The position numbers and the translations under genes were made by a program. Below are positions 35,501 through 43,018 of a stretch of 64,000 nt of DNA, one piece after another (the stretch's first letter is position 1; the number at the start of each line of letters is the position of its first letter). The notes beneath the pieces are model-generated. The model worked only from the letters and a program-made list of their open reading frames with translations. It had not been told where the DNA came from and ran no database searches. The DNA is taken from positions 57,591,817-57,655,816 of the forward strand of contig OZ024872.1 in the NCBI GenBank assembly GCA_964017185.1, written 5' to 3'. This DNA comes from Rugalucina vietnamica (taxonomy: Eukaryota; Mollusca; Bivalvia; Lucinida; Lucinidae).

Positions 35501-38500
35501 CTTTTGACCCTATAAATTCAACGGAAAGGGATTTAAAGTTTTAGAGAAAGGTTCTTAACTTTTTTGTGAGTTGATTGGGAGAAAAGTACATGTGTAAGAA
35601 CAGAAGGCCCATGCAGGGGTACAGTTTAATATAATAATTAATTAAAAAAAAAAAGAAAAAAAAGAAGCAATCTGATTAAAACCAGATGTTTCTTCTTATT
35701 TACATACAGTTATTGTGTAGATAATGTAAATAACATCGGATTTTAATCAGATTGAAAAAAGAAAGAAACATAACAACAACACAGACACATGGCGATGTCT
35801 TCTTTCTTCTGATATACCTGCAATGAAAATATAAAATTTAATTAATTTGTTCTTAGACATGTTTGATGTATTTTCAAAACAAAATTCTAGTGCAAAAATA
35901 CAATGGAAATACTGCTACATCATTAGAATTACCAACCACCAACCTCGCTTGAATTATTATTTGTTTAGATTAAAATTGTAGTTACTTTGGTAAAATATCA
36001 AGTTCACAATGCAAGGAATACCATATTTCTACGTAATGAATGTAATTATGAAGGAAAAATACGAGAACATGAACTATTGTGTGATTTTTTCATCATTTTT
36101 CCTTACACAATAATGCAAATATATGGTCTGTTTTCATCGCGACGCCATATTGTTTTGATAATTTCTAATAGCAACCAACGCTGTGACGTCACAACATTTC
36201 ACCGAATAGGATTATCTCTGTTGTAGGTGCAAATATACAGGTAATCAAATGATGGTTTTCCGTGGAAAACAATGGCTTTTTGGCTGGACAAAGTGGCTCT
36301 ATATATTCGCCATTTATTTTCGCCAAAGTCAAATTTTAGGAGCCAAAAAATAAAAATCTTCGCAAATGGCGATGATGGCGACCGCTAGCGCGAACCCTGA
36401 AGCAAATATATGATAAGAAAGTATTACTAGAAGATAAAATAAAAGATAAACAACAAAATCTTCAATTAAACATACAACAAAATCATAATAATTCAAATTA
36501 CCATCCAAAGAATTGGCTTTATGTAAAAAGCTAAATTTATAGAACATTTGCAATATAAATTTATAGAAACTCTTTACATTTGTAGATAGTCTATAAATCA
36601 ATATCTTTCCCCTACCAGTTTGAAGATGCTAGTATCTCACGGCATGCGAATTACTCGTGACTGTTTGGTGAATTTAGTTGCGGAAATTCGCACGACACTC
36701 ATGTGAGTGCACAACACTCATGTGAGTGTCGCAAGAATTATCATGTGTTGCGAACTAGTCGCAAAGAGACTGTCGTACAACAGTCATACGTCATTTGTTC
36801 GAGTGTCGTGAATCTGTCGCCGCGAATTTACAATGCAACAGTTTCGCGACACTGGTACAAATGTTGTCGCGCGACATGAATGTCTTGACAGTCGCAAGAT
36901 ATATTTGCAAAATTTGGCTGAAATTCACGAATATTTGTATAAATCATCATATTTAATAAATGTCCTTTCATCGAGACTGCAACATGAAAGTTGCGTTTAT
37001 ATTGTTAATCTTTGTCGCGAAATAGTTGCGAACTAGTCTCCAGTTGTTGCATTTCAGTGAGATAGTGGCTTAAATATAAATTATCATTGGATTTAATTTA
37101 ATAGGTGAGGTAAAGTTATAATATCATTTCGCCTGGGATGGAATTAGATGTATATTTTATTGTTATTTGGATCTTATTTCACTAATCAGGTGGTCGGTCA
37201 ATCAGTTATATTAAAGCTTTGCCTGGTGTGGTAATTTGACGTTTCACCAGTAAACTATTCTGATTCTGAGGCACGAGCAGCCCATCTATTTCTCGTGGCC
37301 CCATAGCAGGGCTGGGGTCCTGAATGAAGAGTACTAACATGGTATGAAAGTTAGAATAAATGCAGCAGATCTGAGCCTTTGTTTTTGCATATGCAGATTG
37401 CTGGTTTTCTAATGCAGTGGCTCAATATAATAGACGCCGCATGGGAAAACCAACAATCTGTACACGGATAGTACAATTCCTCTTCTTTCTAAATCTGAAA
37501 TTTCAAGCTTCTAGCCTTTTTCTGTGCTTGTTCAGCCCGGTTTGTGTCGCACCTGTTTGAAAATCACATTGTTGGTTTTCTCACGAGACAGCTCATATGT
37601 TTTAGGAAGAAGAAAAGCTAAAGAAGCACCGTCCTCCTCCAAAGGTGGTACAGAGGTAAGTAAACTGTGTTTCTAGAGATATATAAACTCTTGTATTTCT
37701 TGTACTTTCACATTCCTCATTTCAGTCCTGTGGTTTTTAGCTCACCTGAGCCATAGGCTCAAAAGATGAGCTTATATGATGGCCATGCTCCGGCATCCAT
37801 CCGTCCGTCATAGTCTGTCGGTCCACAATTTCAAAGATCTTCTCTGAAACCACTTGGCCAATCAAAGCCAAACTTCATGTAGAGCATACTTAGGAAGCCA
37901 GGGGGAACGAAAGTTTATATAAATGGTCCAGGTCACATGACCAAGATGGCCGTCATGCCCATATATGGTAAAAAGCATAAAAAATCTTCTTCTCTGGAAT
38001 GGGTGGACCGATTTCAACGAAACTTGGTATGTAACATTTGGAACCCTGGCCCATCATAGTTATATAAATCATGACCTTTGGTTGACCTTGACCTATTTTA
38101 CAGCAAGCTCAATTTTGGTTACATAGGCTTTTCAATGGAAAAAAGTGAAAACATTGAATTTTTCAGGAAGTTTTACAGCCTGTGACCTGAAAGTTGGTAG
38201 ATACAGACACCATTTTGAACAAATGAAGTGTTGTGAGTATAAACGGTCAAGGTCATTTCTTTGACTAATCAAAGCCAAAGTTTATATTTAGTATCCTTGG
38301 GATGGAGGAACAAAAGTTTTTATAAATGGTGAAGGTCACATGACCAAGATGGCAAAAACCTTTAAAAATCTTCTCCAGAACTAGAAGGCCTATGATTTTG
38401 AAACTTGGCATGAAGCATCAGGGAGAGGAGCTCTACAAAGTATATATAAATCATGACCTTGACCTATTTTATGGCAAGGCCAACACAGTTTGCCCATGCA

Positions 38501-43018: not shown

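What the first reader, a model, noticed from the sequence alone, without database searches (positions are those of the whole stretch)
37432..42932. Every downstream TOMM20 exon has a MITE-1 terminus 10-27 nt before its 3' splice site
Seen directly: MITE-1 copies end at 37595, 40275, 41211 and 42904; exons start at 37606, 40289, 41229 and 42932. The gaps are 10, 13, 17 and 27 nt, leaving only the acceptor tail outside the element. Three copies point one way and one the other. The symmetrical TIR places the same GTTGGTTTTC run before the acceptor in the well-preserved copies. Four of four by chance in introns of 0.8-11 kb is unlikely. Either the element targets or tolerates polypyrimidine tracts, or its end was co-opted as branch/pyrimidine sequence. 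TOMM20 introns are likely older than the MITE, so this need not be intron birth.
Basis: partly seen in the sequence, partly recalled or inferred. Interest (0 to 1): 0.85.

Follow-up and report, generated by a model that had tools for sequence, protein, structure and literature searches.

The report
Mobile-element ends crowd exon edges
A very common short mobile element ends just before the start of four exons of one mitochondrial-import gene, and a sample of other genes shows the element to be unusually common beside both edges of exons, not only their starts, whereas in human and mouse mobile elements are reported to be scarce there.

Summary
In detail: 4 of 4 TOMM20 acceptors have a MITE terminus 10, 13, 17 and 27 nt upstream. 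Uniform placement of the same copies in the same introns gives 4 of 4 in 0 of 200,000 simulations.

The acceptor-only reading is not supported. In 80 kinesin and 20 myosin exon loci, chosen without regard to MITEs, a MITE lies within 35 nt of 11 of 98 acceptors and 6 of 99 donors, and within 65 nt of 13 and 17. Termini with up to 3 mismatches lie within 65 nt of the kinesin exon-match edges 16 times, against 1.35 expected from the genome-wide count. Among 57,222 exact termini, acceptor-like TTTYAG is 1.15 times and donor-like ACTYAC 1.34 times commoner at 0-16 than at 30-46 nt.

The target is AWWT, duplicated as 4 bp, without pyrimidine-tract preference. Best reading: a two-sided bias of insertion or survival at exon edges, TOMM20 being an extreme case in a MITE-rich stretch. 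The cause (open linker DNA beside exon nucleosomes, survival of old copies) is inferred. Branch-point co-option is neither shown nor excluded.

The parts
26420..26543 (+). TOMM20 exon 1, coding part
   Evidence: frame and splice site; Pfam MAS20
37461..37595 (+). MITE, 3' part (model 101-235), terminus 10 nt before exon 2; a model 1-61 piece lies inverted at 37363-37423
   Evidence: nhmmer
37606..37655 (+). TOMM20 exon 2
40041..40275 (+). full-length MITE, ATTT on both sides, terminus 13 nt before exon 3; three more copies or parts lie just upstream (39521-40023)
40289..40373 (+). TOMM20 exon 3
40979..41211 (-). diverged MITE, ATAT on both sides, terminus 17 nt before exon 4
41229..41368 (+). 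TOMM20 exon 4
42670..42904 (+). full-length MITE, terminus 27 nt before exon 5
42932..43018 (+). TOMM20 exon 5 to the stop codon
50362..50580 (+). MITE whose low end lies 16 nt before the acceptor of a minus-strand exon
50220..50344 (-). exon of a minus-strand macro-domain gene
   Evidence: splice sites read; weak Macro hit; joined translation matches Pfam Macro 3e-23

Best explanation
The element is a non-autonomous DNA transposon (MITE, about 235 bp, termini GAGCC...GGCTC, 4-bp target duplication AWWT) with about 282,000 recognisable ends in this genome. Its copies are enriched in the sampled introns and most of all within about 65 nt of exons, on the acceptor and the donor side alike. The bias is probably made in two steps: insertion into AWWT sites in accessible DNA just outside exon-bound nucleosomes (inferred), and better survival of old copies there, because deletions that reach an exon are lost (inferred). 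Purifying selection would set the near limit: among the sampled exons no detected copy lies closer than 10 nt to an acceptor or 12 nt to a donor. TOMM20, with 4 of 4 acceptors, is the extreme of this general tendency in a MITE-rich stretch, not a special arrangement.
For: Shown: 57,222 exact ends and 282,334 with up to 3 mismatches, against 45 for the pattern read backwards. In 80 kinesin exon loci 43 such ends against 16.0 expected from the genome mean; within 65 nt of the exon-match edge 16 against 1.35, at 66-260 nt 13 against 4.0; the gradient itself p = 0.0005. With the profile, kinesin plus myosin: acceptors 0 of 98 at 0-9 nt, 11 at 10-35, 2 at 36-65; donors 0 of 99, 6 and 11. Exact ends genome-wide: TTTYAG 1468 near against 1276 far; control TTTRAG 1089 against 1098; ACTYAC 553 against 414; wrong-way donor GTRAGT 444 near; TTTYAG against TTTRAG odds 1.16, p = 0.01; ACTYAC near against far p = 9e-6. 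AWWT sites are only slightly denser near exons: acceptor side 0.060 per nt at 10-35 nt against 0.040-0.052 in the farther bins; donor side 0.052-0.053 within 65 nt against 0.041-0.050. In favour of survival: exact ends are 3 of 43 in the kinesin loci against 20% genome-wide, p = 0.03.
Against: Nucleosome positions were not measured. Survival and insertion make different predictions for young copies, and the data are mixed: exact copies show the near-splice-site motif excess genome-wide, but are not enriched in the kinesin loci (3 against 3.2 expected). The motif excesses are small, and the wrong-way donor control has no far count. The expected numbers use the genome mean, so part of the excess is a general enrichment of the sampled introns (about threefold at 66-260 nt). 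Two protein families are a narrow sample and some of their exons are paralogues. The 20 myosin loci alone show donor-side copies within 65 nt (4 of 20) but no acceptor-side copy there (0 of 18).
Confidence: 0.6

Rival explanations
1. The MITE terminus is co-opted as a 3' splice-site module: it supplies the branch point, so insertion between the old branch point and AG is tolerated or favoured.
For: In 3 of 4 TOMM20 cases, the macro-gene case and five kinesin ones only 10-17 nt lie between element and exon; ordinary branch points lie farther out (recalled), so they would have to be inside the element. 9 of 15 copies have yUnAy inside the MITE at 18-45 nt, as often as other acceptors have it there (41 of 68), so the termini are no worse than ordinary acceptors. 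Acceptor-side copies sit closer than donor-side ones: 11 and 2 against 6 and 11 in the classes 10-35 and 36-65 nt, p = 0.01.
Against: No excess of the motif: 9 observed against 8.3 from other acceptors in the same windows and 7.3 from shuffles, 24% of shuffles reach 9. TOMM20 exons 3 and 5 have no such motif inside the MITE in that range. Donor sides are at least equally enriched, which a branch point cannot explain.
Confidence: 0.15
2. Introner-like intron birth: the MITE made these introns.
For: MITE-like elements with TSDs and TIRs are known introners in other eukaryotes (PMC9860276, passages). In one kinesin intron of about 320 nt (loci L217/L230) about two thirds is one MITE, judged from positions.
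Against: TOMM20 introns are 0.86-11 kb, and both splice sites lie outside the elements. TOMM20 introns 2 and 4 hold several copies. A five-exon human TOMM20 is recalled, not tested.
Confidence: 0.04
3. Only chance and local density: the first reader picked the one striking gene in a MITE-rich window.
For: The window has 39 ends (up to 3 mismatches) in 64 kb, 2.4 times the genome mean. With the sampled rate of about 11% per acceptor, 4 of 4 would be expected in roughly one four-acceptor gene in 6,000 (inference).
Against: The kinesin set, chosen without regard to MITEs, shows the exon-edge excess independently.
Confidence: 0.12
4. Sequence targeting of polypyrimidine tracts by the transposase.
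For: T at the second and third positions after the duplicated AWWT is favoured.
Against: The preference ends there; TTTRAG is not enriched near ends; donor sides are enriched too.
Confidence: 0.04

Closest known systems
Under-representation zones of TEs near exons in human and mouse introns (PMC3088655, abstract and passages seen)
   Same: Same measurement, distance of intronic TEs from exons; a near limit ascribed to selection.
   Different: Opposite sign: there TEs near exons are greatly under-represented, and those under 20 bp lie mostly by donors; here the MITE is over-represented within 65 nt, with 11 of 98 acceptors against 6 of 99 donors within 35 nt.
Introners (PMC9860276, passages seen)
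   Same: MITE-like TIR/TSD elements in genes; their reported insertion into nucleosome linkers is the mechanism proposed here.
   Different: In TOMM20 the elements sit inside introns beside the splice sites and do not form the intron.
Sola superfamily DNA transposons (4-bp TSD and termini recalled; PMC10294476 passages, list Sola1, Sola2 and Sola3 in bivalves)
   Same: 4-bp AT-rich target duplication, GAG...CTC termini.
   Different: No transposase was sought; the assignment is a lead only.
MITE-like consensus 1 in Lucina pectinata haemoglobin introns (PMC4732748, passages seen)
   Same: Short inverted-repeat element in several introns of mollusc genes.
   Different: Its sequence was not compared here; target duplications were not identified there; no distance to splice sites is given in the passages seen.

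Membership tests
MITE (non-autonomous DNA transposon) | short, terminal inverted repeats, high copy number | tested here: met
   235-position consensus; inverted termini GAGCC/GGCTC; 57,222 exact ends
MITE (non-autonomous DNA transposon) | target site duplication | tested here: met
   79 of 103 full copies identical, 11 with one mismatch, 4 bp, AWWT
Sola superfamily | 4-bp TSD (recalled as defining) | tested here: met
Sola superfamily | mobilised by a Sola transposase with matching termini | not tested
   no autonomous partner was searched for
Introner | the element itself forms the intron, with splice sites in the element, its TSD or the adjoining exon | tested here: not met
   TOMM20 only: 10-27 nt of non-element sequence carries the acceptor, and the element nearest each donor is 605 nt or more away
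Introner | intron absent at the site in relatives | not testable with these tools
   the genome has no relatives held
TE depletion near exons (mammalian U-zone) | fewer TEs within 50-100 bp of exons than expected | tested here: not met
   16 observed against 1.35 expected from the genome mean within 65 nt in 80 kinesin loci

The most novel reading that the evidence does not exclude
A single MITE family has re-made many intron ends of this genome: it repeatedly inserted at exon borders, and at a sizeable share of acceptors (about one in ten in the sample) the terminus now lies where the branch point must be, so that a transposon terminus is a normal part of the splicing signal in many genes. 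The secondary distance clusters (48-62 nt at donors, 95-118 nt at acceptors) would reflect nucleosome phasing at insertion.
Probability: 0.12. Interest if true: 0.8.

Novelty: new variant of a known kind. Interest (0 to 1): 0.55.

Why it matters
Mobile elements beside splice sites are expected to be removed by selection, as reported for human and mouse. A family with some 280,000 recognisable ends that in the sampled genes is concentrated within 65 nt of exons makes a direct test possible of how chromatin steers DNA transposons and how much of a 3' splice-site region can be replaced without harm. It would also warn that intron ends in such genomes are partly transposon sequence.

Tried and rejected
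Polypyrimidine targeting: rejected on the target-site profile. Acceptor specificity: rejected on donor counts. Branch-point co-option by motif: 9 of 15, the same share as other acceptors. Intron birth: disfavoured by structure in TOMM20; not tested across species.

Led nowhere: the TIR pattern in viral contigs (3 loci) and genome contigs (104 loci; 80 of them listed there, each with one match) matched viral and prokaryotic records; I took these as chance matches and did not read them. Pfam six-frame scans found only the macro-domain gene: weak hits in 2 of 3 frames of 43001-52900 minus; none in 52701-62600 minus, 43001-52900 plus or 54101-64000 plus (52901-54100 plus and 62601-64000 minus were not scanned). 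A regular-expression scan for termini missed most copies and was replaced. Script one search stopped with an error and was rerun; the exon join printed no protein and was redone. The eight paper searches showed in their listings no report of MITE enrichment at exon edges; most subscription papers are not held. The organism was not identified; mollusc is my guess from recalled repeats.

Selection and losses: 80 of 133 kinesin matches were used, picked by hand in E-value order among those without stops inside; four such matches above the cut (C10:32700117, C10:32700283, C1:3037046, C9:59741751) were passed over and weaker ones were not fetched. Of the 11 kinesin acceptor hits within 35 nt, two (L190, L238) are internal MITE fragments rather than termini, and L230 stops 9 model positions short of the end; L181, seen by eye, is not in the 11. 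L116-L145, 30 of the 68 loci behind the profile, had been fetched for a following TTTYAG. In one search the macro-gene acceptor was set one base off; one search has it right. The macro-gene translation had one wrong residue at a junction (E 1.3e-22); it was rerun.

Full report
The observation. The five-exon TOMM20 frame is open, 161 aa, and matches Pfam MAS20 at 6.4e-40. The element termini lie 10, 13, 17 and 27 nt upstream of the four acceptors; three copies point one way and one the other. The first of them is a composite of two pieces. No donor of the gene (0 of 4) has a MITE within 30 nt. Random placement of copies of the same lengths in the same introns never gave four of four in 200,000 runs. 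This null is uniform and post hoc. A minus-strand macro-domain gene in the window adds one acceptor, of five read, with a terminus 16 nt upstream.

The element. 126 full copies from the window and 68 fetched loci give a 235-position consensus. Of 103 full copies with both flanks, 79 have identical 4-bp flanks and 11 differ by one base; ATAT, AAAT, ATTT and AATT make up 92 of 103. So the element proper is GAGCC...GGCTC, and the final A belongs to the target duplication. Beyond the duplication only the next three bases show a clear preference (A or G, then T, T), which reads as a palindromic target and not a pyrimidine tract. A 4-bp AT-rich duplication with GAG...CTC ends recalls Sola transposons (recalled); no transposase was searched for.

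Genome-wide counts. The window lies in a 1.09-Gb genome of 47 contigs. The exact terminus plus AWWT occurs 57,222 times, and 282,334 times with up to three mismatches, against 45 for the pattern read backwards. Following exact termini, TTTYAG starts at 0-16 nt in 1468 cases and at 30-46 nt in 1276. The control TTTRAG gives 1089 and 1098. The donor motif read from the intron side, ACTYAC, gives 553 and 414; the same motif in the wrong direction, GTRAGT, gives 444 near (no far count). Acceptor-like against control has odds 1.16, p = 0.01; donor-like near against far has p = 9e-6; the donor and acceptor ratios differ at p = 0.05. So exact, presumably younger, copies lie beside both kinds of splice-site motif more often than chance, but the excess is small: about 190 and 140 places among 57,222 ends. 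A rule that holds at every exon is excluded.

Gene-centred sample. To count from the exon side, exon matches of the kinesin family (80 of 133 used) and the myosin head family (20 of 91 used) were fetched with 300 nt on each side. Splice sites were set by frame and a simple score, and MITEs found with the improved profile. Of 98 acceptors, none has a MITE at 0-9 nt, 11 at 10-35, 2 at 36-65, 1 at 66-95, 5 at 96-125 and 5 at 126-260. Of 99 donors the numbers are 0, 6, 11, 2, 1 and 7. The myosin part has no acceptor case within 65 nt (0 of 18) and 4 donor cases (4 of 20). Copies far from the exon are partly cut by the 300-nt limit, so the 23-nt terminus was also counted alone in the kinesin loci: 16 within 65 nt of the exon-match edge against 1.35 expected from the genome mean, 13 at 66-260 nt against 4.0; the gradient has p = 0.0005. 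Exact termini are not enriched in these loci (3 against 3.2 expected), so most exon-edge copies there are older (3 of 43 exact against 20% genome-wide, p = 0.03).

Interpretation. AWWT sites are only slightly denser near exons, most so at 10-35 nt from acceptors (0.060 per nt, against 0.040-0.052 in the farther bins), so target sequence alone does not explain it. I propose insertion into accessible DNA beside exon nucleosomes, by analogy with the linker preference reported for introners (PMC9860276, passages), together with survival of old copies where deletions would hit an exon. Both parts are inferred. In human and mouse TEs near exons are reported as greatly under-represented (PMC3088655, abstract and passages), so the sign of the effect is unusual. 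With about one acceptor in nine flanked within 35 nt, four of four would occur in roughly one four-acceptor gene in 6,000; TOMM20 sits in a stretch with 2.4 times the mean density of ends, so one such gene is not surprising.

Splicing. In nine cases (three TOMM20, one macro-gene, five kinesin: L177, L200, L220, L230, L250; ten with L181, seen by eye) 17 nt or less of non-element sequence remains, so a branch point at the usual distance (recalled) would lie inside the element. A yUnAy motif is present there in 9 of all 15 cases; other kinesin acceptors have one at 18-45 nt in 41 of 68, the same windows would give 8.3 by that rate, and shuffles give 7.3. The termini are thus neither better nor worse than ordinary acceptors, and co-option is open. 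The closer approach on the acceptor side (11 and 2 against 6 and 11, p = 0.01) is the one sign of asymmetry.

Noticed in passing
41388-41500: A partial tandem copy of TOMM20 exon 4 lies in intron 4 and again ends in CAAACAG followed by GTAGG.
   Followed up: no
33199-35565: Array of about 24 tandem repeats of 90 bp in TOMM20 intron 1, open in one frame for 389 aa.
   Followed up: no
26954-29812: Antisense in TOMM20 intron 1: an uninterrupted 952-aa frame with endonuclease and reverse transcriptase domains, a non-LTR retroelement by inference.
   Followed up: no
17806-25397: Two head-to-tail copies of a segment about 3,966 nt apart with much the same set of ORFs, one reverse-transcriptase-like by eye, and 378-nt inverted repeats at 21077, 25045 and 25517.
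   Followed up: no
42334, 43699, 52918, 57131: Further MITE ends in the window are followed within about 20 nt by acceptor-like YAG, but no exon was recognised there.
   Followed up: no
L176-L275: Distances of MITEs from exons have secondary clusters: 48-62 nt from donors (9 of 99) and 95-118 nt from acceptors (6 of 98), as if phased.
   Followed up: partly
L217, L230: An intron of about 320 nt between two neighbouring kinesin exon matches appears to be about two thirds one MITE.
   Followed up: partly
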